Under the pieces are notes generated by a model. It did not search any database, was not told the DNA's origin, and saw only the letters and a list, made by a program, of their open reading frames with translations. A stretch of DNA of 64,000 bases from a virus. Position 1 is the stretch's first letter. Each line of letters begins with the position of its first letter. The position numbers and the translations under genes are program-made. Of the stretch, positions 13,702 to 39,362 are shown one piece after another. Where the stretch lies: positions 124,001 to 188,000 of IMG/VR virus record IMGVR_UViG_3300038441_001119. One strand, written 5' to 3'.

Positions 13702-15195
13702 TTATTTCCTCTCCTCCATTCTCTGCATTCCGAAATTCCGACGGAAGGGGACTGCACCGCCCTTGCCGTATCGACACTTTCCCACGAACAAGATCTGTTC
13801 AGGTAGATACAGCTCAGCCGTACCTCCGGACTCAGAAATGTTCTTATTCTGCATAGCTGACATGCCGATAACGGCAGCTACACCTTTTGCAGGAGCAAAG
13901 GATTCACCCAGATGCTCCTGACTGACGAAGGGTGTGTTGACCCCCTTCCTGTTTGTCTGTGCCAGATAGAGCACACAGATACTATGCTTACGAGCTGCTT
14001 GCAGCAACTGGGAAGCGGCATCTGCATAAACGTGACGGAGCTTGTCTCCTTCATCACTGGTACCCTTGGTGCCGGTCATGGTGTCTAGAGCGCCACCAAG
14101 CCAGTCAAGGATAATGAAGTCAGGAGCTTGCCCCTTGGCCTCCTTGAATTTGGCGATGATGTCCTCGAAAGACTCGTCGACATTGTCTGGAATAGTCCAG
14201 TCAATCATCCACAGGTTTTCGGTCATCTTCTCTTTCATCTCCTTATACTGAGCCTGCTTCTTCGGATCAGGCATGTCTTTCTTCGGATCGAAGTGACCCG
14301 CTATGTTGGACAAGTGCTCCCAGTCATAATGACAACAGTGGGAGATCAGACGTAGCTTGATGGAGGAAGGCGTTTCCTCAGTGGAGATAACTATACCCTT
14401 CAGGTTTTGAAGGATACAAAAGTTGGCGAGCATCTGGATAGTGAACGTGGTTTTACCCACACCAGTGTACGCCAGAACGAGATAGGTATTGGCTTTTCGA
14501 TAACCGCCTCCAAGAGCGCGGTCAAGCGCCTTCATACCAGTAGAAAGGCGCTCAAGGTCGTCCTTGGTTGCAAGCTCGACTTCATCGAATGAGAAAATAG
14601 TCTTCCCTTTTGGAGTATCACTAACATCCAAATCAGAAGCCTGTTTGAGAAGGCGTTTAAGGAGTGCGTTTGGGTTACGCTTGATTTCTCCAGAGTTCTC
14701 AGCTCTGGACATCTCCTTCTCGTACCGTACAGCCGTAAGCCACAGCTTGTACATCCCCGGAATAAGCATCACCGCTCGTTCCGATTTGGAGATCTTGATG
14801 ATCTCCTTCCATTCATTCTCCAGATCAGGAAGATCTCCCGCATTACCCATGTCCGGGTACTTCGAGAAGAAAATCTCACAGATCTGCGCCATGATCTTCC
14901 AATCAGGCGTTGTTACCGCTTTCTTTGATCCATCGACACCGACCAGTACCATGTACATGCGGAATGCCACAAACAGGATGTTCCGCGCCCGGGAATTGAA
15001 GTCCAGATGGAATCGACCATTTGGTTTATCCTGACAGACAAGATCAAGCCACTTCTTATGCTGTCCATAGTCCAAGACCACGGCAGCCATTGCGTTACGT
15101 TCAAACTCGTCCGGGTTGTCGTTGTAAAGTTTCTCGAAGAACGTGGCCGTGATGTCTATGGTCGGAGCAGCTTGCTTCGTATTAATGTGCGTCAT
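13702..15195 (-). CDS. dnaB: DnaB-type replicative DNA helicase
   Basis: 497 residues. A hexameric 5'-3' helicase that unwinds the fork and works with the primase at 11324-12526. The RecA-like motor domain begins around residue 215 (LSTGMKALDRALGGGYRK). Walker A is YTGVGKTT at about 243-250 and Walker B is FIILDWLGG at about 360-368, followed by YLAQTNRKG as the Gln/sensor segment. The N-terminal 200 residues are helical, as in T4 gp41 and DnaB, but show no close match. The start ATG lies 14 bp inside the end of the previous gene. A long non-coding region follows. Confidence 0.88.
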   Translation of the reverse strand: MTHINTKQAAPTIDITATFFEKLYNDNPDEFERNAMAAVVLDYGQHKKWLDLVCQDKPNGRFHLDFNSRARNILFVAFRMYMVLVGVDGSKKAVTTPDWKIMAQICEIFFSKYPDMGNAGDLPDLENEWKEIIKISKSERAVMLIPGMYKLWLTAVRYEKEMSRAENSGEIKRNPNALLKRLLKQASDLDVSDTPKGKTIFSFDEVELATKDDLERLSTGMKALDRALGGGYRKANTYLVLAYTGVGKTTFTIQMLANFCILQNLKGIVISTEETPSSIKLRLISHCCHYDWEHLSNIAGHFDPKKDMPDPKKQAQYKEMKEKMTENLWMIDWTIPDNVDESFEDIIAKFKEAKGQAPDFIILDWLGGALDTMTGTKGTSDEGDKLRHVYADAASQLLQAARKHSICVLYLAQTNRKGVNTPFVSQEHLGESFAPAKGVAAVIGMSAMQNKNISESGGTAELYLPEQILFVGKCRYGKGGAVPFRRNFGMQRMEERK

Positions 15196-15871
15196 CTTCT
15201 TCTGCCTTCTTCGTCAAATTGTTATAGCTTTTACGGACATCCTCGACGGTTATTCCGGCGATTTCTTCCAAAGCGATGGGACGATAGTTTGATGCATCCA
15301 GCCAGTCAAGTGCCTCCTTACCATACTCTCTCATAATCCTTGCGGACTGAGGTAGAACAGCTACACGAGTCACTGCCATACAATCAAGTAGAACAGATCC
15401 GACCACCTTCTCTTTTTCTTCCATGTGGGAAGCCGAGAAAGGGTCCAGCTTACGAGCTTGCATACAGCTGAAGACTGTCTGTATATCAAATGCCAATTCA
15501 AGACTGTCCGGATTGGCGCAGTCTGCGATACTCAATTCAAAGATATCCAAGGCTTTAACATACTCGTCCCAACAGTTGTTGACGAACGATGCAGATTTCA
15601 GCTGGTTCTTGAATAGCTTCCTAGCCGCGTAGGGGTTTGAGTGTTGTCGTAATACCGATTGCTTGAAAACAGCACGAGTTACAAATGACGGGGGTGCTCC
15701 GATCTCCTTGCAGATAGCAGCAAATGTAGCCCACTCTGAGGGCACTTCACCACACTGACGACCCGGATCACCGTCGCGTTTTACTTCGTTAGCCCATGCG
15801 GCTTCGCAAGCCTCCCAAGCAGGATTTTTCTTCTTGGGTCTATCCTCTTCATAAAAGAATTCTTCACTCAT
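15182..15871 (-). CDS. Hypothetical protein between two helicases; helicase-loader candidate
   Basis: 229 residues from the ATG at 15871, which overlaps the stop of the zinc-ribbon gene as ATGAGTGA. An in-frame start 12 codons upstream exists but would run through that gene. The protein is largely helical with many Cys and aromatic residues (EACEAAWANEV, VTRAVFKQSVL). It lies between the UvsW-like and DnaB-type helicases and overlaps the latter by 14 bp. In T4 the loader gp59 is a similar size and all-helical, but I see no specific gp59 motif, so this is a positional guess. Confidence 0.6.
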   Translation of the reverse strand: MSEEFFYEEDRPKKKNPAWEACEAAWANEVKRDGDPGRQCGEVPSEWATFAAICKEIGAPPSFVTRAVFKQSVLRQHSNPYAARKLFKNQLKSASFVNNCWDEYVKALDIFELSIADCANPDSLELAFDIQTVFSCMQARKLDPFSASHMEEKEKVVGSVLLDCMAVTRVAVLPQSARIMREYGKEALDWLDASNYRPIALEEIAGITVEDVRKSYNNLTKKAEEDDAH

Positions 15872-16043
15872 CTTCTTGAAACTCCTTACCACAGGAACGA
15901 CACACATCGTTTGGCTTCGCTGTTACAACTTTATGAACCCATAAACACGGATCGTGGTCCGGCATATTTGGGTCTGAAGTTTCCTCGTAACAATGAGGAC
16001 ATATGAACGTGTCATCCTCGGTAAGATAAAGTGTCTTATTCAT
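15864..16043 (-). CDS. Small zinc-ribbon protein
   Basis: 59 residues. Two Cys pairs, CPHC at about 15-18 and CRSC at about 48-51, frame a 29-residue loop rich in Asp, Pro and aromatics. This is a classic zinc-ribbon arrangement. The start overlaps the stop of the UvsW-like helicase gene as ATGA (16040-16043), and the end overlaps the next gene by 8 bp, so the reading frame is fixed on both sides by coupling. It probably binds nucleic acid or a replication protein. It is short enough to be missed by length cut-offs. Confidence 0.75.
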   Translation of the reverse strand: MNKTLYLTEDDTFICPHCYEETSDPNMPDHDPCLWVHKVVTAKPNDVCRSCGKEFQEDE

Positions 16044-17524
16044 TTTGCTGTGTTCTTTTTGACCAGCTCTTGCATTTTGACAATAAGCTCGTCTCTAGTG
16101 TTCACCCAGTGAATGTTGTACCCTTTTTCCTTGTAGATAGCATAGCGATTATTTGAATCCCTCGCGAGATTGTTGTAGGCACTTTGCGGTCTTGAGTCAT
16201 CAAATGGGAACATGAAATCCACCATGATTCCGGTGACTTTACCTGTGCCCGGCCGGATCTCCGCGAGACGACCGGGTTTCTGGACTGCGTTGGTGTAGGG
16301 GCCGCCTCCTGAGAGGTTGACCACAACACGAACATCGCTGAAGGTGACTCCCTGTGAATAGATGTCAGACGCAAGACAACGTTTGAGCACATTGTCTTTC
16401 ATCATCTCAGTCAACTCATAGCGTTCGTCGCCTTTGAGGAGCTTGTCCATCGCGATAAGCGGGTTGCCTCTCGTGATGAAATCCTTCTGGTACTTGGCCT
16501 GCTTCTCATTCTTGATGAACATCAGCGTCTGCCAGTCCTGCGGGATAAGCTCGTCGCAAATATGCCCTGTTATTCCACCCACGACGGGGTTTTGGAACAG
16601 GTACTTGCGTATGGCAGCATCTCTGTTGGCAGGACACTGCCCCTTGTCTGCCGGATCAACTACGACCAGCACGACATCCAACTGACAAATCGCCCCCTCC
16701 TTAACCGCCTCTTGATAAGTGCGGTTAACAAGAACGGGTCCGAGCAGTCCCTCGATCAATGGGTCCTTCCCATCGAATCTACCTGTAAGGGACGCGCCGT
16801 ACCCGTAACGCAATGCACGACTGAAGGCCCTCATATAGGGAATGCGGGAGTCTGTTACGCATGCGTGTGGTTCGTCTACAAGCAGTAGTTTGGTCTTGGA
16901 GAAGCTACACTTATCCAAGCTATCCATACTGCAAACAGTGACATCATCGGACTGGAAGCGAGTCTTTGAACCCGCTCCAATCAGTTTGACTTCCCGATCA
17001 GGAAGCCATTGGAGTGCAGCTTCATACATCTGGATCACTAGATCCTTGCCGGGAGCCGTCATCACCGTAGTGGTGTGCGGCATTGCCCGGACTGTGTTGT
17101 ATATGAGAGCACTCTTTCCATAGCGTGTCGGTGCTCCGATGAGACCACTCTGACGTCGCTTCAGTGCTTTCGTCAGAAGGTCACCTTGGGAGAATCTGAA
17201 GCCGTACATTTTAGAAAGGTCCAGCGCCGGTAGAGCCTCGCGCTGATCATGTACTTCAATCATAACCTCGTTTTCCACGGCCCACATCATTACCCGCTCA
17301 ATGAAGCCTTGGTCTGTCTGGATGGTTCTATAAGGTTTTTCCTTAAGAACCTCAAACAGCTCGTGCTTGACCCTACGGGTAATGCGTTTCCATGGACACT
17401 TGGGGTCCTGTACCAGCTCTTTCACATAGATCGTGAGAGCTTCCTTTTCCAGCTTCTTGGCACTATTGACAACAGTAAGAGTGTCAGTAGTCCATATCAA
17501 ATGCATCTTTCCTTTTTTATCCAT
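16040..17524 (-). CDS. uvsW: UvsW-like superfamily 2 DNA/RNA helicase
   Basis: 494 residues. In T4, UvsW unwinds R-loops and branched DNA, moving replication from origin to recombination mode. Here motif I is APTRYGKSAL (131-140) and motif II is DEPH (217-220), a variant of DExH. A motif III-like SLTG follows, and motif VI appears as QKPGRLAE near residue 425, with the first Arg in place but the final Arg of QxxGRxxR replaced by Glu. The N-terminal 110 residues correspond to the substrate-binding part. The end is coupled to the zinc-ribbon gene and the start lies 16 bp after the tagged 699-residue gene. Confidence 0.82.
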   Translation of the reverse strand: MDKKGKMHLIWTTDTLTVVNSAKKLEKEALTIYVKELVQDPKCPWKRITRRVKHELFEVLKEKPYRTIQTDQGFIERVMMWAVENEVMIEVHDQREALPALDLSKMYGFRFSQGDLLTKALKRRQSGLIGAPTRYGKSALIYNTVRAMPHTTTVMTAPGKDLVIQMYEAALQWLPDREVKLIGAGSKTRFQSDDVTVCSMDSLDKCSFSKTKLLLVDEPHACVTDSRIPYMRAFSRALRYGYGASLTGRFDGKDPLIEGLLGPVLVNRTYQEAVKEGAICQLDVVLVVVDPADKGQCPANRDAAIRKYLFQNPVVGGITGHICDELIPQDWQTLMFIKNEKQAKYQKDFITRGNPLIAMDKLLKGDERYELTEMMKDNVLKRCLASDIYSQGVTFSDVRVVVNLSGGGPYTNAVQKPGRLAEIRPGTGKVTGIMVDFMFPFDDSRPQSAYNNLARDSNNRYAIYKEKGYNIHWVNTRDELIVKMQELVKKNTAK

Positions 17525-17540
17525 TCAACAAAGGTTCTTC

Positions 17541-19640
17541 TTAGATGAAGACCATTTCTTCTTCAAATTCAGAAAACATTCCCGGAGCAGTTACGCTGAC
17601 AGGAATTGCGTCTTCAAGTTGTCTGTCGAAGAATTCCCAAGATGATCGCGGACTGGGACCACAGCCAAACCGATGCATCAGGGACGTGGTCTTTTCTGGA
17701 ATAGTCGCATCACTGAAATTAGTGAGAACCATTTCCTGTGAGATGTAGTTACCATCGAACAGACGACCAGTACCGTTTACAAGGGGTACATTGAGAAGAG
17801 TCTCTGTATCTTCGCAGTTGGCAATCTGATCTCTGGCAAAGGCCAACAGTTTCCTGTAGTCGTACTCTCCAGAGGTAACAAATTGTTCAACAAAGCCAAT
17901 AACAGGGTACAGCTCTTTTGCTATGTCTTCCAGTTGTTTCCACTGTGCGACAGTGGCTGCATGTTGGTTCGGAGCGACAAGATGGGCGTGGTGGCTGGCG
18001 GCGCTCAGGGAAAGAGTCATGTTGATGCTGGCCAACCACGGCAGCCCTGTTCTAGACAGACCTCCGGGGACAGCTTTGACCATGGCGGGCATGACGAAAT
18101 CCTCATCTTCCAGTCTTCCCCACTCGTTCTCAGTAGTAGGAATCCAACTTGGTCCCATGTGGTTGTTGCAGACGTCCGCAGGAGACATCCACAGAGTGGT
18201 CAGATAAGTGCAATACAGCGTATCAACTTGAACGTGGTTACCGCGCATGAGCATGTCTGCAGACTGTCCCGCAGCATACATCTGGGGATGCTGCATAGAA
18301 ATACCATAGCTGTAAGGGTCGTTTCTGGCGTAGACGCCCCAGCCTTCCGCAGTATTAGCTTCAGCCCTAAAAGACGTCGTCCAGCGCGTGGTTCCCCGAG
18401 GATTATCACCCGGACCAAGCTGTGGTAGCCACCAAGTGTTCCGCTTATCTTCCTCCGCAACGGCGGTATAACCTCCTTTACGGATGTCGACGGTCATCTT
18501 GGTGTCAGTGCAACTTCCATTTTCCACCTCACGAATAGTGCGGTTACGATGAAAGACCTTCATCTTGTGATTGGTCTGAAACGCCCGGAACATGTGTTCC
18601 GTTCTCCGAAGACGCAGCAGGTTCACACGAATGTTACCCTCTCCTTCGACGTCGGTGGTAAGGCCGCTCACGTAGAGATTACAGAAGCCAACATCTACGG
18701 GCATCTCACGGAAAGGCGCTTTGACTTTGTACGCCAAGGTGAGTTTGCGGTTCTTGAGTCTAGCCATACCTTTGGCGTAATTCTCCACCTCAACCGTACC
18801 TGTATTTTTGTACAGAGAGAAAGTAGACTCCATGAACCGGTCACCGTTGGATGCCATCTCCATCGTGTGATGTGCTTGCTGCACTCGGTCACTGATGTAA
18901 TGAACAATGGTACTCTCGATCCGAATGTTACCGTTATCCATCATCTTGATAAACAAGCTGACAGGACGCTGGTCACCTGAAGGATCATGGACCATACATT
19001 GATGCCCCTTTACCCGAACCAGTTCCCCGTCCTTGGTTCCCCACAGTTGCTTGCCTTCCGCATTGGTGTGCGTAAAGACTTCGATGGACGAGGTTACCCG
19101 TGTGTCCGTACTGGGGATATACCTTGCGAAGTGATGCGCATTGCTCTCACTGTAAGTACGTGAGACAACACCTCCTCTAGAAAGAGGAGCAACTGCCAAA
19201 GAAGTCCCTCCTCCATTGATGGCGGCGAAAAGCGGAGTGTCAATGGACATAGATGAATCTATACCGTTGGTCCTCATAATCGTGAACGAATCGCTTCCCG
19301 AAACCAGCTGCAGTCGCTCCGAAGAGGTGTTGAGGTTGATGTTCATGGCTGCTGCTAGAAAATCCTCCATCGTAGACAGAGTCATTCCAGTTGCCTCACC
19401 TATCGTGACATCTACTGGAGAGCCAATCGTCTTGGAAAGAACATCGCGGTCAAAGCCAGTAGCAAAACGCATGAAAAAATGAACAGGGGAGAGGGTTGCA
19501 CCTTCTCCGTCTGGTCGATGGTAGTCCTCACGTTGCTGAGGACCGTACCGAACGGCGCCGATGACGCTGTTCGGGTGCGTTGGGCTGATGTAACGTTGAT
19601 ACGTGTCCCCTCCGCGTACGAAATAGTTGATTACTCTCAT
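17541..19640 (-). CDS. Large tagged protein of unknown function
   Basis: 699 residues, beta-rich, with no enzyme motif recognised and no membrane segment. The C-terminus is SEFEEEMVFI, a member of the shared tail family, 15 kb from the other tagged clusters. The middle has repeated beta-type stretches (NIRIESTIVHYISDRV, VEVENYAKG) and the last 200 residues look helical. It resembles a structural or virion protein more than a replication enzyme, yet it lies inside the replication block. It is coupled by ATGA (19637-19640) to the upstream gene. If the tail is a virion or compartment address, this would be the largest cargo. Confidence 0.75.
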   Translation of the reverse strand: MRVINYFVRGGDTYQRYISPTHPNSVIGAVRYGPQQREDYHRPDGEGATLSPVHFFMRFATGFDRDVLSKTIGSPVDVTIGEATGMTLSTMEDFLAAAMNINLNTSSERLQLVSGSDSFTIMRTNGIDSSMSIDTPLFAAINGGGTSLAVAPLSRGGVVSRTYSESNAHHFARYIPSTDTRVTSSIEVFTHTNAEGKQLWGTKDGELVRVKGHQCMVHDPSGDQRPVSLFIKMMDNGNIRIESTIVHYISDRVQQAHHTMEMASNGDRFMESTFSLYKNTGTVEVENYAKGMARLKNRKLTLAYKVKAPFREMPVDVGFCNLYVSGLTTDVEGEGNIRVNLLRLRRTEHMFRAFQTNHKMKVFHRNRTIREVENGSCTDTKMTVDIRKGGYTAVAEEDKRNTWWLPQLGPGDNPRGTTRWTTSFRAEANTAEGWGVYARNDPYSYGISMQHPQMYAAGQSADMLMRGNHVQVDTLYCTYLTTLWMSPADVCNNHMGPSWIPTTENEWGRLEDEDFVMPAMVKAVPGGLSRTGLPWLASINMTLSLSAASHHAHLVAPNQHAATVAQWKQLEDIAKELYPVIGFVEQFVTSGEYDYRKLLAFARDQIANCEDTETLLNVPLVNGTGRLFDGNYISQEMVLTNFSDATIPEKTTSLMHRFGCGPSPRSSWEFFDRQLEDAIPVSVTAPGMFSEFEEEMVFI

Positions 19641-20200
19641 TCTTTTTTGGTGTCAGTCTTAACAGCAGTACTCGGTAGTCCGAGTATGCTGGCGATTTCG
19701 GCTGGAGTAGCCCGCTCTAGTTCGAGCAGGCTAAACCTTCCGTATTGATATTTGTTTCCCCATTGCGAGATCCCATAGAACTTCCCGATGCAATGCAGAA
19801 TGTCTGCCACATCTTTTTCATCGGGAGGCATGAGTCTCGTAGAGGATTGCTTTTGTCGTTCTTTGGGTACAGCCGTTGAAGCGAGAACATTCACTGTAAG
19901 CACAGCGCCTGCTCTGACAGCTTCGAATACTTCCTGTTTTGGAGCACCACCAACCTTGAAGTTGCGTCGATGCTCCACGGTGGTTGGAGCCGCAAACGGA
20001 AGGATCTCCCGTAAGCACTCCGAGTCCAAGTCTCCTTCCCTGTTCATAGTCGAGAGGGATTCAGTTACAGCCCACTGCCAGTGATCCAGAGGAACCACGA
20101 CATTGAAGTCACGGTCACGTAAGAGTGTCCGTATCTGGTTCTTTCCTCTGACCACACCAAGCAAGGCTGATGTCATTTTCAATTTGGCAGTGTAAAACAT
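19637..20200 (-). CDS. Hypothetical protein upstream of the large tagged gene
   Basis: 187 residues. It begins MFYTAKLKMTSALLG (a second Met at residue 9 is possible). The C-terminal half contains ATPAEIASILGLPSTAV, which looks like a small helix-turn-helix-like or structural helical motif, after a glycine-poor hydrophilic middle. There is no tag. It is coupled to the 699-residue tagged gene by ATGA, so it may be its chaperone or partner. No family recognised. Confidence 0.7.
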   Translation of the reverse strand: MFYTAKLKMTSALLGVVRGKNQIRTLLRDRDFNVVVPLDHWQWAVTESLSTMNREGDLDSECLREILPFAAPTTVEHRRNFKVGGAPKQEVFEAVRAGAVLTVNVLASTAVPKERQKQSSTRLMPPDEKDVADILHCIGKFYGISQWGNKYQYGRFSLLELERATPAEIASILGLPSTAVKTDTKKE

Positions 20201-20203
20201 ATT

Positions 20204-20662
20204 TTATGCTATTGCTAAAGCTGGCTTGTTATAAGCCGCTTTCAGTTCAGTGACTACTTCCTTTCCCTGCGCAGACAGGGAACGTGTCCGAGACCATGGT
20301 CCTTCCTCCTTCCAACAGTCGTCACGGTCATGTAGGGCCTGTATGTCATTCCAGAATCCCTTAAGAGGGTAATACGGAGCTTGTGGCGGAATATAGTGCC
20401 CCCGGAATTCAGGTTTCAGAATATCCTCACCTCCTCCACAACCTCCGATACTTTGGAGGTTTTCGATAGCGGAGATATTTTCTATTAGTTTCTTCCTGCC
20501 TTCATCGGTACAACAAAGAGAGAAGGCACATACAACACCGTTCCCGCCGTCGTAACGGCAGGAAGTCGTGATTCCTTCATCTCCATCATCCATATCGACT
20601 ACCGATCTGGGATTGTTTTCGTAGTGTTTGACTACGTAATCAATGATTTCTATTTTGGTCAT
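20204..20662 (-). CDS. Hypothetical Cys-containing protein
   Basis: 152 residues. The N-terminal half has a beta-type core with CRYDGGNGVVCAFSLCC, and a glycine-rich GGCGGG follows at about 73-78. The C-terminal half is helical, with a Trp-rich GPWSRTRSL segment. The cysteines do not form a clean zinc-finger pattern. It is coupled to the SbcC-like gene by ATGA and is followed 3 bp later by the next gene. Function unknown. Confidence 0.7.
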   Translation of the reverse strand: MTKIEIIDYVVKHYENNPRSVVDMDDGDEGITTSCRYDGGNGVVCAFSLCCTDEGRKKLIENISAIENLQSIGGCGGGEDILKPEFRGHYIPPQAPYYPLKGFWNDIQALHDRDDCWKEEGPWSRTRSLSAQGKEVVTELKAAYNKPALAIA

Positions 20663-23115
20663 TTGCTTTCAATGTGTAGGATGTTGCCGCAGTTCTCCAA
20701 GACCTTCTTATCGTGGTCACACACGATGATCTGGGAGTTACCTGCGAACAGCGTCTCACTCAATTTACCCAATAGCTCGGACAACTGCCGCTTGCTCTCG
20801 TCATCCAAGTGGAGCGAGGGTTCGTCCAAGACAAGCAACCCGATATTCGGGAGCAGTGTCCTCTGAACAGCGATAAGGAACGCCAAGGAAAGTCGAACCT
20901 TCTGACCACCCGACAGATAATCCTGCGGAAGCCAGACGGAGTTCGGTTTCATCATACGGAAGTCGAAGGTAAGAGGAACCGTGGCGGACGGGCGGATCTC
21001 ATAAGTGGTGTCCAGCGAAGCGAGGATATCCGAGACTGCGTCCGTGATATACTCGAATTGCCGTCTGATATACAGTTTGGGTATCTCATCCAGCTTAGCT
21101 GACAACCTCTCCAGACCGGCGATGAAACTAATCTTCTTCTCTCCTTTACGAACCTTATCCTCGTAGTCCGCAACCTCTTTTGCAAGGGCTACGAGACGTG
21201 CGGTTAGTGCGCGTTTTGAGGCTTGAAGCTCTTGGTATTCCGCTTTTCGGTCGGAAAAATCCAGAGCAATATCTGAGACACGATCAAGACTAAAGTCAGG
21301 AAGGTCAAGCTCAGCAATTTTAGCGTCAAGCTTTTCAGAGTCGCCCTTTCGCTCATGTTCAAGATTTTGGATCTCACGTGTGTTGCGTTCTATTGTGGTT
21401 AATGTGGTGTGGCGCACTTTTTGTGCATTGGTGAGTTGCTGAAGCTCCTCATCAATCTTAGCAATACCTTTGTCCAGTTCCTCCACGGAAGTACCCTCGG
21501 CCTTGATGTCGGGGATCTCGCGTAGGGCTTTGTTAGTCCACTCCAGTTTCTCAGTCAGAGACTTGATCTTCTTGTCATAGAAGTCACGGGCACCTTTCAT
21601 TGCTGAATACTGTGCTGCCTCTTTTCGTGCTACCGCGATAGGGTTGTCACTCTTGAGTTCCTCGAAGTCGTCAATGTTCACGAATCGCTTGAACAGTTTC
21701 ACACCGGGGTAGTTGGAGATACGTTCCAGATCCGTACGTTTTTTGAACCACTTCTCAGTGAGAGTCTTCAGTGCCTGACTGTGTTCCGCTATAGCGCCCT
21801 TGTAGACCGCTGCAGCGTTGGTTAACTCAGTCAAGTTAGCTTCCTGCTTGTCGGTCCACTGAAGTCGCTCAGAATCCACCTGAGACTCACAGAAGGGGCA
21901 GTCACAACCAGCCTTATTTGACAGCCGGAAGGCTCTGACTTCTTTGAGTAGGGCAATCCTGTCGACCAGCCTTTCCAGCTCCTCTTCCACCTTGGAGATC
22001 TTTCCCGCATCATCTTTCAGGTCATCCACCGATTTCTTCAGTCGGTCAACTTCCTTACTGGTGACACAGTACTCATGGAGGTTACCATCCCAGTTTACAG
22101 TAGCCGCAAGTCCTGCTTTATCCCATTCCGCTACAATAACTTCACCTATGGGGCAAAGAGTCTGCAGGTCAGGTAGAGCGAACAAGTCAGTGTGCGCTTG
22201 TACGATACCATCAGTGTATTCCTTTTGTTCAGCCTTAAGCTTGGCAGCCGTAGCTGCAAGCGAATGCGAAAGTTTAGCGGAAGTCAGTTGTGCCTTCTGA
22301 CCGTCCAGTTCCTTTCTTTTACTATTGTCAGCATCAATATCTGGTCCAAGGGTAGATCCTAGTATGGAATTTTCCTGCGAAAGAGCTGCACGTCGCTTCG
22401 AGAAATAGATCATTCCCGTCGCAAGCGTTTCGATCTCTGTAAGCAGAGTGTGCTTTGCTACGACCCCTTCTTCATCCAGAACTTTGAGCTTATCATTGGT
22501 TTCTTCTAATTGGGTCTGCGTTTGGGTGTACGCCGCTACAGAGGATTCCAATAGCGGCATATAGTTGATCGCTCCTGCTTTGAGGAGCTGTACTCGGCTC
22601 TTTACGTGTCCAGACGCTGCGCGCATGTAGTCTGCGTCCAGCACCCGCATAAAGAGCTTCTCACGTTCAGAACCTATGCTACCGAGCAGGTGTGCTAGTG
22701 TCCCCTGTGAGATAAAAACAAGACGCCCGAGTGTGGAAGGGTCGGCACCAAACATGGAGGCCAACCGTTCGTCCACTTTCTTCGCTGCGGTAATGATTGG
22801 TTCATCACCTATCCGAAGAGTGCGCTCAGTGCTTGAGTGTTTGATCGTTTTAACAATCTCCACCAGTTCTCCTTGCGGGGATTCGAGAACGGTTTCGATT
22901 ACTGCCTTACCTTTTGGGTCGAGGTCTTTGATGTAGGAAGATGCTTTACGCGAAGCTTCCGAGAATTCATTGGCTACCACATACCTGAGGGTATTGAGTA
23001 GCACCGATTTACCGGAACCGTTTGCACCGATGACACCGAAGAGGTTACTCCCCAAGTCGACATCAAGTTTCGCATGAGGTCCTACATTCGTTAGCTTATG
23101 CGAAAGAATTTTCAT
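20659..23115 (-). CDS. sbcC: SbcC/Rad50-like ATPase subunit (T4 gp46 type)
   Basis: 818 residues. With the SbcD-like nuclease it forms the complex that processes DNA ends for recombination and degrades hairpins or host DNA. Walker A is GANGSGKS at 30-37. Two long coiled-coil arms flank a zinc hook, CPFC at 406-409. The ABC signature LSGGQ is at 734-738 and Walker B LLVLDEP at about 760-766, with an H-loop CDHD near 790. All key motifs are intact. The start lies 20 bp inside the end of the SbcD gene, so the two are translationally coupled. Confidence 0.94.
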   Translation of the reverse strand: MKILSHKLTNVGPHAKLDVDLGSNLFGVIGANGSGKSVLLNTLRYVVANEFSEASRKASSYIKDLDPKGKAVIETVLESPQGELVEIVKTIKHSSTERTLRIGDEPIITAAKKVDERLASMFGADPSTLGRLVFISQGTLAHLLGSIGSEREKLFMRVLDADYMRAASGHVKSRVQLLKAGAINYMPLLESSVAAYTQTQTQLEETNDKLKVLDEEGVVAKHTLLTEIETLATGMIYFSKRRAALSQENSILGSTLGPDIDADNSKRKELDGQKAQLTSAKLSHSLAATAAKLKAEQKEYTDGIVQAHTDLFALPDLQTLCPIGEVIVAEWDKAGLAATVNWDGNLHEYCVTSKEVDRLKKSVDDLKDDAGKISKVEEELERLVDRIALLKEVRAFRLSNKAGCDCPFCESQVDSERLQWTDKQEANLTELTNAAAVYKGAIAEHSQALKTLTEKWFKKRTDLERISNYPGVKLFKRFVNIDDFEELKSDNPIAVARKEAAQYSAMKGARDFYDKKIKSLTEKLEWTNKALREIPDIKAEGTSVEELDKGIAKIDEELQQLTNAQKVRHTTLTTIERNTREIQNLEHERKGDSEKLDAKIAELDLPDFSLDRVSDIALDFSDRKAEYQELQASKRALTARLVALAKEVADYEDKVRKGEKKISFIAGLERLSAKLDEIPKLYIRRQFEYITDAVSDILASLDTTYEIRPSATVPLTFDFRMMKPNSVWLPQDYLSGGQKVRLSLAFLIAVQRTLLPNIGLLVLDEPSLHLDDESKRQLSELLGKLSETLFAGNSQIIVCDHDKKVLENCGNILHIESK

Positions 23116-24196
23116 GTTTCGTAATATACTGCTCCAACACTGCGTGCGGGCTATTGTCCTTTTTGACGATATTGAAGGCGAGTGCCTGCAGATCGTCGTC
23201 TTCTCCTTCCATCAGTTCCTGAGCCACATCAATGATAGACACGGACACAACGTCTCCGGTCATAACCTCGTGAACGGCTTTCGCTGTTCTTGGGGTGATG
23301 TTCTTCTTTCGTACAATGTCAAATGGACCAGTGTGGATGTGCAGAGCATTGACCACGTCCTCGTACTCATTGGTGTAGTGAAACCAAACAAACCTAGGAA
23401 CACCGCCTGTAGAATGTAGTAACTTTTCAGCAGGTTCCACATCTTCAGGAGCAGCCACTTTAACAATCACTACGGGTGTGGTTGGAATCTTGTGCTGCTT
23501 GAATCCTTCAAACTTACCGGTCTCGACGTTAAACTCATGGACCACGATGTACTTGCTGGGGTCCTCATCAACGTCCGTCATTTCCACAGGACCGGGATAT
23601 CCGATCACGGAGTCTTCCGTCGTAATGTACGAGCATACGTGGATATCTCCAAGCATCCAGTTCCGTGTGTAGGATCTGTCAAAGAATTCCTGCGCTGCCG
23701 GATATTTACCTCCACCAGTGAACTCAATAACGCCTCCATGCCATAGAGCGATATCGGTAGGTTCTCCGGGGTTCTCCTTCAATCGTTCAAACAGTTCGTT
23801 AGGGGTTTTGGTTTTGTACCCCACTATATGCAGTTTCGTACCACGGATGTTGATCCGTTTGTTATCCACACTGACAATGCCAACGCCGTCAGGATGGTTG
23901 TACTTCTCAATCCACGGGGGTTCATCCCAGTCATGGTTACCCGTCAGGGTGAACATTGTCATGCTGCGTTTCACAAGCTCTTCGTGGAGCCTGTCCAGTA
24001 GTGACACTGGATACGAGCCATTACGACTCGCATCCAGAATGTCACCCGAATTCACGATGTACCTGACGTCGTTATCGAAGAATGCTTTGATGCCCTCTAG
24101 GCAAGCATTGTAGATAGCGTCAGCGCGAAATTTCTTACCGTACTGAGTAGCACACAAGTGCCAGTCAGATGTATGTCCAATTTTTATCTTTGCCAT
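23096..24196 (-). CDS. sbcD: SbcD/Mre11-like nuclease subunit (T4 gp47 type)
   Basis: 366 residues, a metallophosphoesterase acting as the endo- and exonuclease of the SbcCD complex. Metal-binding motifs are in order: DWH (Asp11, His13), GDILD (Asp52), GNHDW (86-90), WHGG (His153) and GDIH (Asp184, His186). The C-terminal 120 residues form the capping and SbcC-binding part. It overlaps sbcC by 20 bp. The ATG at 24196 lacks a Shine-Dalgarno sequence. Confidence 0.94.
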   Translation of the reverse strand: MAKIKIGHTSDWHLCATQYGKKFRADAIYNACLEGIKAFFDNDVRYIVNSGDILDASRNGSYPVSLLDRLHEELVKRSMTMFTLTGNHDWDEPPWIEKYNHPDGVGIVSVDNKRINIRGTKLHIVGYKTKTPNELFERLKENPGEPTDIALWHGGVIEFTGGGKYPAAQEFFDRSYTRNWMLGDIHVCSYITTEDSVIGYPGPVEMTDVDEDPSKYIVVHEFNVETGKFEGFKQHKIPTTPVVIVKVAAPEDVEPAEKLLHSTGGVPRFVWFHYTNEYEDVVNALHIHTGPFDIVRKKNITPRTAKAVHEVMTGDVVSVSIIDVAQELMEGEDDDLQALAFNIVKKDNSPHAVLEQYITKHENSFA

Positions 24197-27620: not shown

Positions 27621-29501
27621 ATGTATAAGTCTAACAAAGACCTTTATTCGCGAATTAGTAACGATACTAACTTCCGACTCAATATTAACAAACTATTTGG
27701 GAGATTTCAAATAGAAGCAGCGGAAGCAGCAAAAGGTCGTCCCGGCGCTGAGGAGAAGCGGGACAAGACGATGATGGAACTATTCCAGTATTGTGGTTGG
27801 AACGTTGGCATTTTCTTTCCCCTGTTCTTCCCCAAGATGATTGAAGGGGGTCCTCTGAATGTGATGCGTCGTCCGTTCGGATTCATGATGACCGAGCTGA
27901 ACGTCTCTGGTTACACCTGTATCAGGGGTAGTCGTCAGATCGCAAAGTCCACCAATCTTGTTGGCAGGCAGCTTGTTAAGGGATTCCTGTTTCCTCGGTT
28001 CAAGTCGATGTACATCTGTCCTCACAACAACCACAAGAAAACCTATCAGAACAGGTTTGCTGAAATGGAGGCGGCATGTCCGTTCATGGACTTCGTGTAC
28101 AAGAACCCTCGTCTCCGCACCAACCTTTCGTACAAGCAGTATCCTCTGGAAGGTGAAGTAAACATTGTGAACTGTCTGACCGACTCTTCGCAGGCGCGTT
28201 CGAAAACCACTGATGAGCTTCTGTACGACGAGTACCAGCTCTTTGACTGGACTCTTGAAGGTGATATTCGTCCCTGCCAATCGGTCTCTAAGATTCCGAT
28301 GACTGTGTATGCAGGAACCTCCACCACTGTCGACTCCCCTCTGGAGTTCCGGTACCAAGAGGGAAGCCAACATACGTGGAAGGTCAGAAGTCCGAACGGT
28401 AAGGATTGGATTGATTTCGGTGACGAGGAGTTGATGATCAAATGCATACGTCCTCGCGGTTTGGTGTGTCCTTACACTGAACGTCCCCTGAATGTCGCAC
28501 AAGGCGAGTACACTCCTACTTACAAGGATAGACATGAATATGGTTACACCAGTATCCATGTTCCTCAGCTTATTATCAAAGACAAGGTGGAGCACCGTAT
28601 CGACTGGGCTAAGATCTACGAAGCTTTTGAGGAGTTCGATAGACCGAAGTTCATGGAAGAGTTCCTTGGTATCCCCTCGGAACTGGGTGCTCGGGAAATT
28701 ACTGAGGCAGACCTTAAGGCGATCTGCACTCTTGGGAGCAAAGACGAGGTCTTTGAAAGGGTCAAACGCGGTGACTACAGTATTATTGTCTCTGGCTTTG
28801 ACTGGGGTGGTTCTGACCACATTCCACACATCAAAGCTTCCCGCGTTAGTTTCACTGCCAATGCTGTTCTTGGTCTATCTGCTGATGGATACGTTGATAT
28901 CCTTCATATGAGGCAGCACCATGGTATGAACTATGACTTCATTACCGGGCAGATTGCTGAGGACTACAGGAAGTACCAGTGTAACGCACTAGCTTGTGAC
29001 GCTGCTGGTGGTCAAGTCTACCTCAACAATCTTGATAAGCTTCTGAATCATAAGACTAACTTCCGGTTCGGTTACCACGCGCATGTCTTCCAACTGATGG
29101 GAGTTCCTTCGCATGGAGCGCCGAACCATTACACGTTGAACAAGCACGAGTCTATCGCCCAGCTGTTCCAAGCCATCAAGCACAAGAAGATTCGCTGCTA
29201 CAAGTGGGAGGAGTCCGGGCCGCGTCTTAGCGAGATCCTGAATGTACAACGTGTTCTTATCGAACCGCAGTCGGGACCTCCGAAGTATCACTATCACATG
29301 ACACCTCGGAATCCCGACGATACGGTTCATGCTTTGAACTACTCATATATTCTGATGCGCTTGCTTGCTGGTGAAAACGTTGTTCACGACGAACGCTTGA
29401 TGCGTACTATTCAACAGGCTGTGCGGGGCGAGAATACTTTCTCCCCATTCCAGACATTCGGTGGTGTACCGAATCTGTTCGGGGAAATCGTTTCCGGTTA
29501 A
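27621..29501 (+). CDS. terL: Terminase large subunit
   Basis: 626 residues. The motor and nuclease that packages DNA into proheads. The ATPase domain has a T4-type Walker A variant SRQIAKST at 104-111, Walker B LLYDEYQ at 200-206 with catalytic Glu, and a coupling motif AGTSTT at 231-236. The RNase H-like nuclease has GFDWGG (Asp393), ACDAAG (Asp460) and NPDDTVH (566-567). The ATG at 27621 is chosen because the frame further upstream is antisense to the 27402-27620 gene. It is one of only two genes on the plus strand. The stop shares the palindrome TTAA with the stop of the convergent gene. Confidence 0.95.
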   Translation: MYKSNKDLYSRISNDTNFRLNINKLFGRFQIEAAEAAKGRPGAEEKRDKTMMELFQYCGWNVGIFFPLFFPKMIEGGPLNVMRRPFGFMMTELNVSGYTCIRGSRQIAKSTNLVGRQLVKGFLFPRFKSMYICPHNNHKKTYQNRFAEMEAACPFMDFVYKNPRLRTNLSYKQYPLEGEVNIVNCLTDSSQARSKTTDELLYDEYQLFDWTLEGDIRPCQSVSKIPMTVYAGTSTTVDSPLEFRYQEGSQHTWKVRSPNGKDWIDFGDEELMIKCIRPRGLVCPYTERPLNVAQGEYTPTYKDRHEYGYTSIHVPQLIIKDKVEHRIDWAKIYEAFEEFDRPKFMEEFLGIPSELGAREITEADLKAICTLGSKDEVFERVKRGDYSIIVSGFDWGGSDHIPHIKASRVSFTANAVLGLSADGYVDILHMRQHHGMNYDFITGQIAEDYRKYQCNALACDAAGGQVYLNNLDKLLNHKTNFRFGYHAHVFQLMGVPSHGAPNHYTLNKHESIAQLFQAIKHKKIRCYKWEESGPRLSEILNVQRVLIEPQSGPPKYHYHMTPRNPDDTVHALNYSYILMRLLAGENVVHDERLMRTIQQAVRGENTFSPFQTFGGVPNLFGEIVSG

Positions 29502-30298
29502 ACCCAGACAAATTCCTCGGTCACCTCATCGCGGGTCTCAGCGAACTTGTGTTCGAGGTACTTGGGTGCGAGTTCGTTCCACTTAGCTTCGGCTAACAGT
29601 TTCACCTCCGTACTGTCGGGGTTATGTAGGGCGTACTTTGCCATATTGACCGCGTGTACGGTTACACCTTGCATCACACGGGGGAATATGTGCAAGTTTT
29701 TGGTGAATACGTCTACGTGCCTCGTGGTCTCGCTTCCATAGTTGAATAAGTTCAACGTACCGATCACCACCTTCTCCGGTGACACTTCATACATCGAATG
29801 GACATCGAGCTGAGAGTGCCCAAATAGAGCCGACCTTGTTTGTAGCGATTTACCAATCAATACTTCTCCACTAACGAACTGCACTTCTGCTCCAGAAGAA
29901 ACGTGACCCCTCACGTTGACGCTTTCTCTGAACTCTATCTTGGTACCAGAAGGACGAGCGTGGATACTATCGAGGGATTCCACGCTTGATCGGAACACAA
30001 GATCCCCGTCCGATTCGATACGACCATGCGCGTGAACACTTTCTAGGAAAATTGTCGTTCCAGTTCTCCGACGAGTAAAGTCCATGTTCTTGAACATTAC
30101 TACCGTACCAACTCCCACAGTCAATCCTTCATAAGTATGGCCTGCTGGTAGATGTACGATACCAAGTCCGGATTCTAGGACAAGTCTCGACTCTCTTGAA
30201 AGAGTGAGCAGCGTTGACTGTAGAGCTGGAAGAAGGATCTTCTCTTTGGAGAACCTATGCGCAGTCGTCAGGTCTTCTTTAGATATATGAAAGTCCAT
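29498..30298 (-). CDS. Tagged beta-solenoid-like protein 1
   Basis: 266 residues. Short beta-strand repeats run through the middle (RRTGTTIFLESVHAHGRIES, GDLVFRSSVES, GTKIEFRESVNVRGHVSSGA), spaced roughly 18-22 residues apart. This is the look of a right-handed beta-helix or bactofilin-like solenoid. The end is DEVTEEFVWV, the shared C-terminal peptide with Trp in place of Phe. Four such genes are adjacent (29498-32621), all tagged. The stop is convergent with terL, sharing TTAA. Solenoids in phages usually serve in fibres, spikes or surface layers, but there is no trimerisation or enzyme domain here. Confidence 0.75.
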   Translation of the reverse strand: MDFHISKEDLTTAHRFSKEKILLPALQSTLLTLSRESRLVLESGLGIVHLPAGHTYEGLTVGVGTVVMFKNMDFTRRRTGTTIFLESVHAHGRIESDGDLVFRSSVESLDSIHARPSGTKIEFRESVNVRGHVSSGAEVQFVSGEVLIGKSLQTRSALFGHSQLDVHSMYEVSPEKVVIGTLNLFNYGSETTRHVDVFTKNLHIFPRVMQGVTVHAVNMAKYALHNPDSTEVKLLAEAKWNELAPKYLEHKFAETRDEVTEEFVWV

Positions 30299-31098
30299 TA
30301 TATGAATACGTACTCTTCTTCGAGGACAGAGGTTGGCAGCTGAGGTCCATTGATGATGACTTTGGACTCCAGCTGTTTGGCGTAGGTCGGATGTCCCTTG
30401 AACAGGAACTCGTCACACCTGACAGGGTACTGCACATCGTTGGAATCGACGTTGTGGTGCCACAGTCCTTCCACGGTAACTGTGGGTAACGTTTTTTGTG
30501 CTGGGATGTCGGCGGGCCAGAGCTGGATCATACCTGTAGTCTCCAGTTTGGGGCATTTGACATTGCACTGTGCCATATGTATCTTGACAACCTTCACGGG
30601 ACTATCGAAGACGATATTGGCGAACTTCTCAGAATCGTTCTCAGCCATCGTGACAGGAACGACAATGATATAGTCGGCCTCGGCAGGACCCTTGATGTGA
30701 ATGAACATGTCACTCAATGCTACACCAGATGGACGTAACGACAGATTCAGTACAAGATCAGCTCCGGATGACCCTTTGTAGCTACCAGCAACAACAAGTT
30801 TATGCTTAACGATAATCTGCCGATTGTGCTCAAGGTTACCTCCTAAGTTTCCTGTAGTTAAAGTAAATTGGCAGGAATTAATCCTGATATTCGTTCCGCT
30901 ACCTACTTCGAGATGCCCTACGACACAGGTGGAACTAATATCGTATGCACCGAGGTCAGGAGCGATGGCAACATTGGGTAGACGGGATGGTTGTCCTTGC
31001 CTGCCTTGCTCTCGTCCCCATGCTGTAATAGCTGCGCTAAGGTTCGTAGTACGGGAGGTGATATTGATGTCGATTGTTGGTATTTCAGGTGGTTTCAT
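30298..31098 (-). CDS. Tagged beta-solenoid-like protein 2
   Basis: 266 residues, the same length as its downstream neighbour. Repeated strands such as GSGTNIRINSCQFTLTTG and NRQIIVKHKLVVAGSYKG suggest a solenoid. A segment ANIVFDSPVKVVKIHMAQ recalls TNIAFKKVAI in the next member. It ends SVLEEEYVFI. A 1-bp TAATG overlap couples it to 29498-30298. Paralogous to the flanking genes but strongly diverged. Function unknown; display or scaffold roles are inference. Confidence 0.75.
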   Translation of the reverse strand: MKPPEIPTIDINITSRTTNLSAAITAWGREQGRQGQPSRLPNVAIAPDLGAYDISSTCVVGHLEVGSGTNIRINSCQFTLTTGNLGGNLEHNRQIIVKHKLVVAGSYKGSSGADLVLNLSLRPSGVALSDMFIHIKGPAEADYIIVVPVTMAENDSEKFANIVFDSPVKVVKIHMAQCNVKCPKLETTGMIQLWPADIPAQKTLPTVTVEGLWHHNVDSNDVQYPVRCDEFLFKGHPTYAKQLESKVIINGPQLPTSVLEEEYVFI

Positions 31099-31101
31099 AA
31101 T

Positions 31102-31860
31102 TTAGATCCACACGAATTCTTCTGTGATGGGTTCTGTAATGATGGCGACCTTTTTGAAGGCTATATTGGTGAACTTAAGTGACCCATGGTTAACCTTAGG
31201 TCCAAGTTCCTCCGTGCGCACCGCTACTGACAGGGTGGAATTGGTTGGCGGTACGTTGAACTCCGTACAATCTACAACAATATGCTCGGTTGAGCGTCTA
31301 CTGTTGGTAGCCGCAATACTCAACGCTGTAAGGGTACCATCTACACTCAGATGAGAGTACATACCGCGAGCCACTACCATGTGGCTGAGGGTGACATCTC
31401 CTTCTACAGTCAGGCTACCTGTTATTAGCAGCTTGTTGGTACCTGATACTTCTTTGCTGATAGGACCGCATATGGTACCTGACGACTTGGTCATACAATA
31501 CAAAGTACCGAAAGCGTGGTTGGCGAACGAGGCATTACCTGCTGGTCGACTTATCCCATTTTCAAACAGGAACTTTCCGTACAAGTCCATGGAGTACTGG
31601 TACCCCATTTTCCCCTGTACATGCACAGTACCATGTATGGAAATTCCAGATTCGAAATACAGTTCCGTACCTGCGCCGATCCGAAGGTGACGTACCACTG
31701 CCCAGAAAGCGATATAGACCACACCTAGTCCTCCGGGAACATCCCAGTCAATCGTGCGTCCCCGGTTGTTCATCGTGGACATACTGACCACTCTGTGAGT
31801 CATGCGAGGACGAAGCTCACAGTGATCCCACCCGTTTTGTGTTATGGTTGGAAATTTCAT
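31102..31860 (-). CDS. Tagged beta-solenoid-like protein 3
   Basis: 252 residues from the ATG at 31860, which overlaps the upstream stop as ATGA. The open frame reaches back to 31992, but that section covers the previous gene. The body has regular strand-turn repeats (GAGTELYFESGISIHGTVHV, NKLLITGSLTVEGDVTLSHM). It ends ITEPITEEFVWI. It shares the phrase 'G-A-G-T-x-L' before the first long strand with members 2 and 4 (GSGTN, GDGTN), supporting common descent. Confidence 0.75.
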   Translation of the reverse strand: MKFPTITQNGWDHCELRPRMTHRVVSMSTMNNRGRTIDWDVPGGLGVVYIAFWAVVRHLRIGAGTELYFESGISIHGTVHVQGKMGYQYSMDLYGKFLFENGISRPAGNASFANHAFGTLYCMTKSSGTICGPISKEVSGTNKLLITGSLTVEGDVTLSHMVVARGMYSHLSVDGTLTALSIAATNSRRSTEHIVVDCTEFNVPPTNSTLSVAVRTEELGPKVNHGSLKFTNIAFKKVAIITEPITEEFVWI

Positions 31861-32621
31861 ACAAATACGTACTCCTCTTCTATTGGACTGGTGACTGGTG
31901 CATATCCTTGCTTTGGTACATGCATAGGTTTTTCGCGAACATGGACGCTCTTGAAGTGTTCCTTGGTAGTACCATCTCCGAGACGGTCGCATATTACGTG
32001 GGTAGGCAAGGGACCACCGGCTCTGTCAGAGGACCATCCTGCCTCAAACGTACCGGCGTCAATATATGGAGGTGTGTTTCCGACAGGGAAGTCATAATGT
32101 TGTACCCAGTCGGCTAAGCTAAATGTACCACTGACAGTTACCTCCGAGCTTCCAGCAGAACCATCAGTATATTTTCCAGTGCAGGTGAGGTCTCCTTTGA
32201 CGATAAGCTGGGTTTGCTGCCCGTCCATTCTGATGGAGGTTGTTTCGCAGTTTCCGTCTACTGTAACAACGTCTTTTACAATGATGCGAACACCATACGA
32301 CGATTTGACGATAAGATCGCCTTTGACATGGCACGTTTCGTAGAACCCTAGGTCACCCTTAAGGACAGTGAGGTCGCCTCCGAAAACCGAATCGCGGTAA
32401 CAGAACGTAATCCCGTCCTGCATGGTTAGGTTAGTTCCATCGCCTACAATCGCGGTTCCGATAACAAGCGATCCATCATGGTAAATATCTCCCAAGTCTG
32501 GATCAATATGCAAGTCCATGTCACCTTTGCTGATGACTCTGTTGCTGTGTACCGGGAATGGCCAGACGATCTGACCGTCATGTGAAATGTTGTCTTTTGT
32601 GATTACTATTTTTTCTCTCAT
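31857..32621 (-). CDS. Tagged beta-solenoid-like protein 4
   Basis: 254 residues and the clearest solenoid of the four. It has at least seven consecutive strands of the form x-V-x-G-[DN]-L-x-V (DLTVLKGDLGFYETCHVKGD, KGDLTCTGKYTDGS). The pattern resembles bactofilins and polymer-forming cytoskeletal proteins. It ends VTSPIEEEYVFV. It is the first gene of the quartet, starting 15 nt after a strong terminator hairpin, so its expression must depend on read-through or on a promoter not recognised here. Confidence 0.78.
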   Translation of the reverse strand: MREKIVITKDNISHDGQIVWPFPVHSNRVISKGDMDLHIDPDLGDIYHDGSLVIGTAIVGDGTNLTMQDGITFCYRDSVFGGDLTVLKGDLGFYETCHVKGDLIVKSSYGVRIIVKDVVTVDGNCETTSIRMDGQQTQLIVKGDLTCTGKYTDGSAGSSEVTVSGTFSLADWVQHYDFPVGNTPPYIDAGTFEAGWSSDRAGGPLPTHVICDRLGDGTTKEHFKSVHVREKPMHVPKQGYAPVTSPIEEEYVFV

Positions 32622-32636
32622 TTTGGTTACACGAAA

Positions 32637-32666
32637 AAGCCCCGGAAGATTGCTCCTCCGGGGCTT
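32637..32666 (-). terminator. Strong rho-independent terminator
   Basis: AAGCCCCGGA pairs with TCCGGGGCTT (10 bp, perfect) around a 10-base loop, followed on the minus strand by TTTTTCGTG. It is 33 bp after the stop of the small 32700-32852 gene and 15 nt before the next ATG. Confidence 0.85.
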
Positions 32667-32699
32667 CGGTTTAGTTGAGTTTAGGAATTGTCTTCCATC

Positions 32700-32852
32700 T
32701 TATTGGCAGGATTCGCATGTACCATCAAGGTTGCATGCTGGTACGCCTAGTTCTGGCCAATCTTCATCTTCAACTTGGGACGGACCTTTCTGACCGATAA
32801 GTTCGTCTTCCTGTTCCTTACTCAACCGTTGCGTTTCGTTCTCCTTGCTCAT
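32700..32852 (-). CDS. Small Cys-tailed protein
   Basis: 50 residues starting MSKENETQRLSKEQEDELIG, acidic, ending VPACNLDGTCESCQ. The three cysteines (C-x5-C-x2-C) in the last 12 residues could bind a metal or form disulfides. The ATG at 32852 lies 35 bp inside the 3' end of the AAA ATPase gene, matching the local overlap style, and a terminator follows the stop. A shorter start (TTG at 32825) is possible. No family recognised. Confidence 0.6.
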   Translation of the reverse strand: MSKENETQRLSKEQEDELIGQKGPSQVEDEDWPELGVPACNLDGTCESCQ

Positions 32853-34203: not shown

Positions 34204-35018
34204 ACGATAAGGTTAAGGGTCTTTGCGAAAAACTTGATGTCGACATCTGGGTCGATTCCTTCAAGCCCAGTTTCAAGGGACCATGGTTTGCCATAGTGCG
34301 TTAGGAACAGATCGGTCTTCAACTTCTTATTGCGCCAATGTTTGGTCAGCTCAGAGAAGTGACAGTGGTTACCTCCCACCACTTTACCGTGATTCTTGGC
34401 ATCATGTATGACGATGTCAGATTGCTCACACAGGTCATGAGGCTCCATACAGTCGGACGTGAAAAGAACACGGTTACCGTTGTCACTGACGAACCAGAGA
34501 CCATAGTTGGACTTGAACTGGTCATCGTACATGCTGCCCGCTTGCTGCTTGAAGAGAGGCATGTGCCGTGAGAACTGATACTGGAACCGAATACCTTGCC
34601 AGACGAATGACTTGTAGTTGGGCATAGCATCGCGATCAAAGTAATCGTCAACAGTGATACCCCTTCCATCGTAGAACGCTTCCAGACCATGCATCAGTGC
34701 GGTGTCCAGTTCGTCCATAACGTCAGGGTGTCCGAACAACTTGGGACGTATCCTCTTTCCGTTCTCGTCAGTCTTGGGGATGTAGTACCTCGAATGGGCC
34801 AGCATCTCCAGACCTCCCATATGGTCACCGTGAATGTGGGAGATATAGACGGCATCAATATCCGTGAAGGGAATCTTGAACTCGTCCCTAAGGATGTAGG
34901 GAGTCGTGGTACCGCAGTCGAAAAGTAGTTTCTTGTTGTTGTGTTCAATAAGGAAGGAAGAGTTGCCTTCGTCCATAGTCGCGAAGGCTCCACCGTTTCC
35001 GAGGGAAGTGATTTTCAT
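34200..35018 (-). CDS. Metallo-beta-lactamase-fold hydrolase, possible cyclic-nucleotide phosphodiesterase
   Basis: 272 residues from MKITSLGNGGAF at 35018. Further upstream the frame runs through a hairpin. The metal site is complete: HIHGDH at 61-66, His152, Asp189 (FTSDC) and His241 (LTHYG). The overall pattern, with a short N-terminal beta segment GNGGAFATMDEGNSSFLI, is that of RNase Z-like phosphodiesterases. The phage anti-Pycsar protein Apyc1 belongs to this group and has about this length, so cleavage of signalling cyclic nucleotides is an attractive but unproven role. tRNA processing or cyclic-phosphate hydrolysis are alternatives. Confidence 0.85.
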   Translation of the reverse strand: MKITSLGNGGAFATMDEGNSSFLIEHNNKKLLFDCGTTTPYILRDEFKIPFTDIDAVYISHIHGDHMGGLEMLAHSRYYIPKTDENGKRIRPKLFGHPDVMDELDTALMHGLEAFYDGRGITVDDYFDRDAMPNYKSFVWQGIRFQYQFSRHMPLFKQQAGSMYDDQFKSNYGLWFVSDNGNRVLFTSDCMEPHDLCEQSDIVIHDAKNHGKVVGGNHCHFSELTKHWRNKKLKTDLFLTHYGKPWSLETGLEGIDPDVDIKFFAKTLNLIV

Positions 35019-35060
35019 GTATTGGGTGCTAGTGGTAGGTAAAAAGAGGGAACGACGAAA

Positions 35061-35101
35061 TCCTAGCCCACTCGCCTCGTGAAAGGACAGGTGGGCTAGG
35101 A
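35061..35101 (-). terminator. Hairpin between macro-domain and MBL genes
   Basis: TCCTAGCCCAC pairs perfectly with GTGGGCTAGGA (11 bp) with a 19-base apical part that can add a short inner CCT/AGG stem. It starts 4 bp after the macro gene stop; T-rich sequence follows only later (CCCTCTTTTTACC). It may be a terminator or an mRNA end-protecting stem. Confidence 0.65.
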
Positions 35102-35104
35102 CGG

Positions 35105-39284: not shown

Positions 39285-39362
39285 GTTATGGCTGGTTGTA
39301 CACGGATGGTTAGACACCGTGTTGGTTTATGTCAGAACCTCACTAAAAAATGAAGACTGACT

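What the first reader, a model, noticed from the sequence alone, without database searches (positions are those of the whole stretch)
17541..19640. A 699-residue tagged protein inside the replication block
Flanked by the UvsW-like helicase and SbcCD, this large beta-rich protein carries the same C-terminal tail as the small proteins 15 kb away. That placement suggests the tag is not limited to one gene cluster and may link replication or DNA handling to the tagged set.
Basis: partly seen in the sequence, partly recalled or inferred. Interest (0 to 1): 0.6.

Follow-up and report, generated by a model that had tools for sequence, protein, structure and literature searches.

The report
Phage proteins sharing a tail tag
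In a 212-kb phage genome, eleven proteins with mostly unrelated bodies end in the same short peptide, which looks like an address label that docks accessory proteins onto one common partner; the 699-residue protein is one such cargo sitting in, but probably not working in, the replication operon.

Summary
Confirmed: the minus-strand ORF 17541-19640 (699 aa) lies between UvsW-like helicase and SbcCD genes and ends ...SEFEEEMVFI, a divergent member of a C-terminal tag E-[ED]-[YFMW]-[VIT]-[FW]-[VI]-COOH. Exactly 11 proteins in the 212-kb record carry it (21-34 bits; next tail 4.6). None of 156,424 internal 10-mers reaches this protein's score. Codons vary, so the constraint is largely on protein.

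The body matches nothing in Pfam, PHROGs, NCBIfam, PDB, phage records or 53 kin virus records, and the fold prediction failed. A colinear relative (G010; Pol 45%, UvsW 49%) keeps the operon but has three small unrelated genes in this slot; 0 of 5 testable tagged genes versus 41 of 61 untagged have orthologues there. No identified replication enzyme carries the tag. The protein is therefore a lineage-specific passenger in a replication operon.

Unexpectedly, another relative (G022) has a different tag, R-x-[LIV]-D-[TIVL]-x-COOH, on nine proteins.

Most likely mechanism: a C-terminal docking or sorting peptide loading accessory proteins onto one phage-encoded receptor, perhaps the prohead, as the T4 capsid-targeting sequence does. 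The receptor is unknown; a DNA-handling hub remains a rival.

The parts
17541..19640 (-). 699-aa protein of unknown fold with C-terminal tag (P0001)
17544..17573 (-). its tag SEFEEEMVFI (last 10 codons before TAA)
145..564 (-). tagged 139-aa protein, ...EPITEEYIFV; paralogue of 561-968 (27%)
561..968 (-). tagged 135-aa protein, ...EPVTEEYVFV
965..1531 (-). tagged 188-aa acidic protein, ...EPITEEYVFV
1547..2533 (-). tagged 328-aa protein, ...EPIDEEMTFI
29498..30298 (-). tagged 266-aa beta-solenoid-like protein, ...DEVTEEFVWV
30298..31098 (-). tagged 266-aa beta-solenoid-like protein, ...SVLEEEYVFI
31102..31992 (-). tagged 296-aa beta-solenoid-like protein, ...EPITEEFVWI
31857..32621 (-). tagged 254-aa beta-solenoid-like protein, ...SPIEEEYVFV
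13702..24196 (-). replication/recombination operon (SbcD, SbcC, 152 aa, 187 aa, P0001, UvsW, DnaB) into which P0001 is inserted; kept without P0001 in relative G010
29498..39317 (-). lineage-specific insert of about 10 kb beside TerL with four tagged genes, an AAA ATPase (32818-34203) and an Apyc1-like metallo-beta-lactamase-fold protein (34200-35108)

Best explanation
The tail is a C-terminal short linear docking (sorting) peptide. Shown: 11 proteins of this phage with mostly unrelated bodies end in [EDS]-[PVE]-[ILVF]-x-E-[ED]-[YFMW]-[VIT]-[FW]-[VI]-COOH; the constraint is largely on the protein and at the free C-terminus only; the testable carriers are lineage-specific accessory genes. Inferred: the alternating hydrophobic/aromatic strand after two acidic residues, often preceded by a Pro/Thr/Ala-rich stretch, is held in a groove of one phage-encoded receptor, so proteins with unrelated bodies are brought to one place. 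[quoted passage not shown] P0001 would then be a large cargo whose gene travels in the replication operon, not a replication factor. My confidence in a docking/sorting peptide of some kind is about 0.85; in the capsid-loading version about 0.35.
For: Bimodal tail scores and zero internal matches; clustering 29 pairs vs 0.4; invariant E at -6, E/D at -5, F/W at -2, V/I at -1 with varied synonymous codons. Bodies unrelated except one pair and the weakly related four-member solenoid set. In colinear kin G010, 0/5 tagged versus 41/61 untagged genes have orthologues (Fisher 0.006, four of the five in one insert). Insert 29498-39317 also holds an Apyc1-like predicted anti-defence protein (PF23023 52 bits, cut-off 50). 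No shared N-terminal signal exists in this genome. A second phage, G022, has its own different C-terminal tag on nine proteins. [quoted passage not shown]
Against: No receptor is identified. Tagged proteins contain none of the K-[KS]-A-[SA] motifs that recur in this phage's head proteins, so nothing marks them as head components. Their codon adaptation is low (all 12, including the variant, at or below the 29th percentile), unlike abundant virion proteins. G022's tag is on an SbcC-like ATPase and an AAA ATPase, which are odd capsid cargo. A slight excess of identical codons (153 vs 126 expected, P 0.0075) leaves room for some DNA-level copying.
Confidence: 0.45

Rival explanations
1. [quoted passage not shown]
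For: Tag is acidic plus hydrophobic at the free C-terminus; P0001 lies in a replication operon and tagged genes 145-2533 lie between UvsX and a helicase. T4 precedent PMC2988020. G022's different tag is on an SbcC-like protein.
Against: None of eight identified replication or recombination enzymes here carries it. No bacterial beta-clamp domain found (controls rang); the T4 gp45 family search was uninformative.
Confidence: 0.22
2. The tag docks surface proteins (adhesins or decorations, including the beta-solenoid set) to a shared site on the tail or capsid.
For: Four tagged proteins are predicted solenoid-like, a fold common in phage adhesins.
Against: Low codon adaptation; genes not in the virion structural modules; no significant fold match.
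Confidence: 0.12
3. The tag is a turnover or unfoldase signal read by a host protease or by the neighbouring AAA ATPase (32818-34203).
For: C-terminal position; AAA gene beside the four-gene cluster. The phage also encodes a tmRNA.
Against: The tmRNA's own tag reads ...VVALAA, unlike this tail. No phage PDZ domain found.
Confidence: 0.08
4. Chance or a DNA-level element (promoter, ribosome-binding site) at gene ends.
For: Slight excess of identical codons.
Against: Third positions vary freely, two stop codons are used, profile scores are bimodal.
Confidence: 0.02

Closest known systems
T4 capsid-targeting sequence of internal proteins and Alt
   Same: Short terminal peptide shared by otherwise unrelated, variable proteins (PMC3012670, PMC5694885)
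   Different: T4's is N-terminal and removed by the prohead protease; here C-terminal, no cleavage evidence, no shared N-terminal sequence
Encapsulin cargo-loading peptide
   Same: About 10 residues, mostly C-terminal, on unrelated cargo, bound inside an HK97-fold shell (PMC7355545)
   Different: No encapsulin here; capsid binding untested
T4 sliding-clamp-binding C-termini (gp43, gp55, gp33)
   Same: Hydrophobic and acidic C-termini shared by several proteins, with a flexible linker in gp55 (PMC2988020)
   Different: There the carriers are polymerase and late-transcription factors; here no identified replication enzyme is tagged
Phage-nucleus import
   Same: Selective recruitment of phage proteins to one place
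   Different: Uses a folded recognition surface and no N- or C-terminal signal (PMC11087766)

Membership tests
T4-type capsid-targeting sequence | N-terminal 10-20 residue propeptide | tested here: not met
   Tag is C-terminal; no N-terminal sharing
T4-type capsid-targeting sequence | Carriers share only the signal, bodies diverse | tested here: met
T4-type capsid-targeting sequence | Signal cleaved by prohead protease, carriers in mature head | not testable with these tools
   Needs virion mass spectrometry; head K-[KS]-A-[SA] motif absent from carriers
Sliding-clamp-binding C-terminal motif | Present on the phage DNA polymerase or late-transcription factors | tested here: not met
   Polymerase and the 187-aa protein with a weak, sub-threshold sigma-r4 match lack it
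Sliding-clamp-binding C-terminal motif | Phage sliding clamp present | tested here: inconclusive
   No beta-clamp; gp45 model rang nowhere
Encapsulin cargo-loading peptide | Binds the HK97-fold shell interior | not testable with these tools
   none
tmRNA/ssrA tag | Tail equals the tmRNA-encoded peptide | tested here: not met
   Phage tmRNA frame gives ...ASKEVVALAA
PDZ class II ligand | PDZ reader encoded by the phage | tested here: not met
   PF13180 and PF00595 absent, controls rang; a host reader is not excluded

The most novel reading that the evidence does not exclude
Some large phages of this group mark a set of unrelated accessory proteins with a lineage-specific C-terminal address label: E-E-Y-V-F-V type here, R-x-L-D-I-x type in G022. 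Label and receptor would have been replaced between lineages, giving each phage a private protein-sorting code.
Probability: 0.35. Interest if true: 0.8.

Novelty: new variant of a known kind. Interest (0 to 1): 0.62.

Why it matters
Short terminal targeting peptides in phages are known mainly from T4 (N-terminal). A C-terminal label shared by 11 proteins, with a different label in a related phage, gives a sequence-only way to list candidate cargo or host-takeover proteins in phages where nearly every gene is unknown, and points to a phage-encoded receptor that can be fished out with the peptide.

Tried and rejected
Homologues of the body: none by Pfam, PHROGs, NCBIfam, PADLOC, PDB, phage tblastn, IMG/VR patterns, or 53 kin records. 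Tag DNA pattern in IMG/VR: none (16, 25; one search used an over-strict pattern). GTDB scan: one hit, out of frame in a glycosyltransferase gene, chance. Tag absent from 53 kin records. Single-sequence AlphaFold of P0001 useless. Solenoid-set model pLDDT 52.7, no significant fold match. T4 prohead protease family PF03420 not found, but its control also rang nowhere. tmRNA-tag idea rejected. PDZ reader in phage rejected. Stop recoding rejected: TAG is a rare stop (3 of 194), the tagged genes end in TAA or TGA (24, 86). The idea that the tag's I-x-E is the prohead cleavage site is weakened because head proteins carry a different repeated motif.

Full report
Observation. The reported ORF is on the minus strand, 17541-19640, 699 aa. 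Its start overlaps the stop of the upstream gene (ATGA). It is part of a tight operon: SbcD, SbcC, 152 aa, 187 aa, P0001, UvsW-like helicase, two small genes, DnaB. The tail SEFEEEMVFI is a divergent member of a shared tail. The window is 124001-188000 of a 212,352-bp virus record. Over the whole record exactly eleven proteins carry the tail, all on the minus strand.

Is it more than chance? Clustering the last ten residues of 291 ORFs without prior knowledge gave 29 similar pairs against 0.4 in internal windows, and one ten-member cluster (one tagged gene was lost to the overlap filter). A profile built from the other ten scores P0001's tail at 21.4 bits. None of 156,424 internal 10-mers reaches this (best 14.1), and the next tail in the genome scores 4.6. 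That next tail, EEDVTDWEFV, belongs to the gene directly downstream of tagged L004:12220-12855 and may be a shifted twelfth member. Position -6 is always E, -5 E/D, -2 F/W, -1 V/I; synonymous codons vary, so the constraint is largely on the protein.

What are the carriers? Bodies are unrelated except the 145/561 pair and a weakly related set of four solenoid-like proteins. None has a significant family match. All have low codon adaptation relative to the structural genes. The identified replication and recombination enzymes all lack the tag.

Relatives. Head and tail genes relate this phage distantly to Salmonella phage Arash and Vibrio phage D181, which have neither the gene nor the tag. A head-protease alignment found 65 kin loci. 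The nearest, G010 (71.9 kb, locus L049), is colinear: polymerase 45%, UvsW 49%, MCP 53%, TerL 37% identity. In G010 the P0001 slot between the 187-aa orthologue and UvsW holds three unrelated small genes. The four-gene tagged cluster lies in a lineage-specific insert of about 10 kb next to TerL, together with an AAA ATPase and an Apyc1-like protein. None of five testable tagged genes has an orthologue, against 41 of 61 untagged (Fisher 0.006; four of the five share one insert, so the events are not independent). G010 is a fragment, so the tagged genes at 145-2533 and outside the window could not be compared.

A second tag. The same tail analysis on 13 relatives found one other case. In G022 (229 kb) nine proteins end R-x-[LIV]-D-[TIVL]-x, scoring 13.8-19.1 bits while the next tail scores 1.7. 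Each held-out tail is matched by 0-22 of 77,258 internal windows and by no untagged tail. The pattern was defined on the same data, so these numbers are optimistic; a pattern search with no prior choice gave log10 P of -9.0 for the tails against -6.2 for the best control position. Codons vary there too. The carriers include an SbcC-like ATPase (the weakest member) and an AAA ATPase. The remaining genomes showed nothing comparable.

Mechanism. A short hydrophobic-acidic peptide at the free C-terminus of many unrelated proteins is best read as a docking signal for one receptor. That carriers are accessory and lineage-specific, one set beside a predicted anti-defence gene, fits loading of host-interaction proteins into the prohead, by analogy with T4 internal proteins (PMC3012670, PMC5694885). 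G022's SbcC-like carrier and the T4 clamp-binding tails (PMC2988020) keep a DNA-handling hub alive. The receptor is not known, and the capsid step is inference only.

Verdict on the finding. The proposed link to replication rests only on position, and comparison with G010 weakens it. The wider result, two different private tags in two related large phages, is more interesting than the single gene.

Noticed in passing
L061/G022 record; L128:3904, L129:19695, L130:1693, L131:10358, L132:1810, L133:7074, L133:7496, L133:9501, L138:14177: A related 229-kb phage has a different C-terminal tag, R-x-[LIV]-D-[TIVL]-x-COOH, on nine proteins including SbcC-like and AAA ATPases.
   Followed up: partly
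L006:6879-7985, 8044-9495, 10535-12103, 14452-16719, 4780-5772, 6387-6860: K-[KS]-A-[SA] motifs (KSAS, KKAS) recur in head-module proteins, and similar K-x-A-S motifs in phage Arash head proteins; possibly a maturation or scaffold motif.
   Followed up: partly
L004:7396-7856 (-): Phage-encoded tmRNA (RF00023, 103 bits) with a long tag frame ending ...ASKEVVALAA.
   Followed up: partly
L004:1697-1775, 7124-7199, 7214-7291: Three tRNAs called by ARAGORN with four-base anticodons (ccta, gaaa, tttg).
   Followed up: no
window 34200-35108 (-): Metallo-beta-lactamase-fold protein matching anti-Pycsar Apyc1 just above the Pfam cut-off, next to a tagged cluster.
   Followed up: no
window 27351-29501 (+) and 41193-43631 (+): Terminase large subunit and an 812-aa ORF are among the few plus-strand genes in an almost entirely minus-strand genome.
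   Followed up: partly
L004:11450-12220 (-): 256-aa protein ending EEDVTDWEFV directly downstream of a tagged gene; possible shifted variant of the tag.
   Followed up: partly
G010 56471-57247 (L116:16471-17247): In the P0001 slot of the relative, two tandem small paralogues share both ends (QEEKNI... and ...EAIGKTLKLW) but have divergent middles.
   Followed up: no
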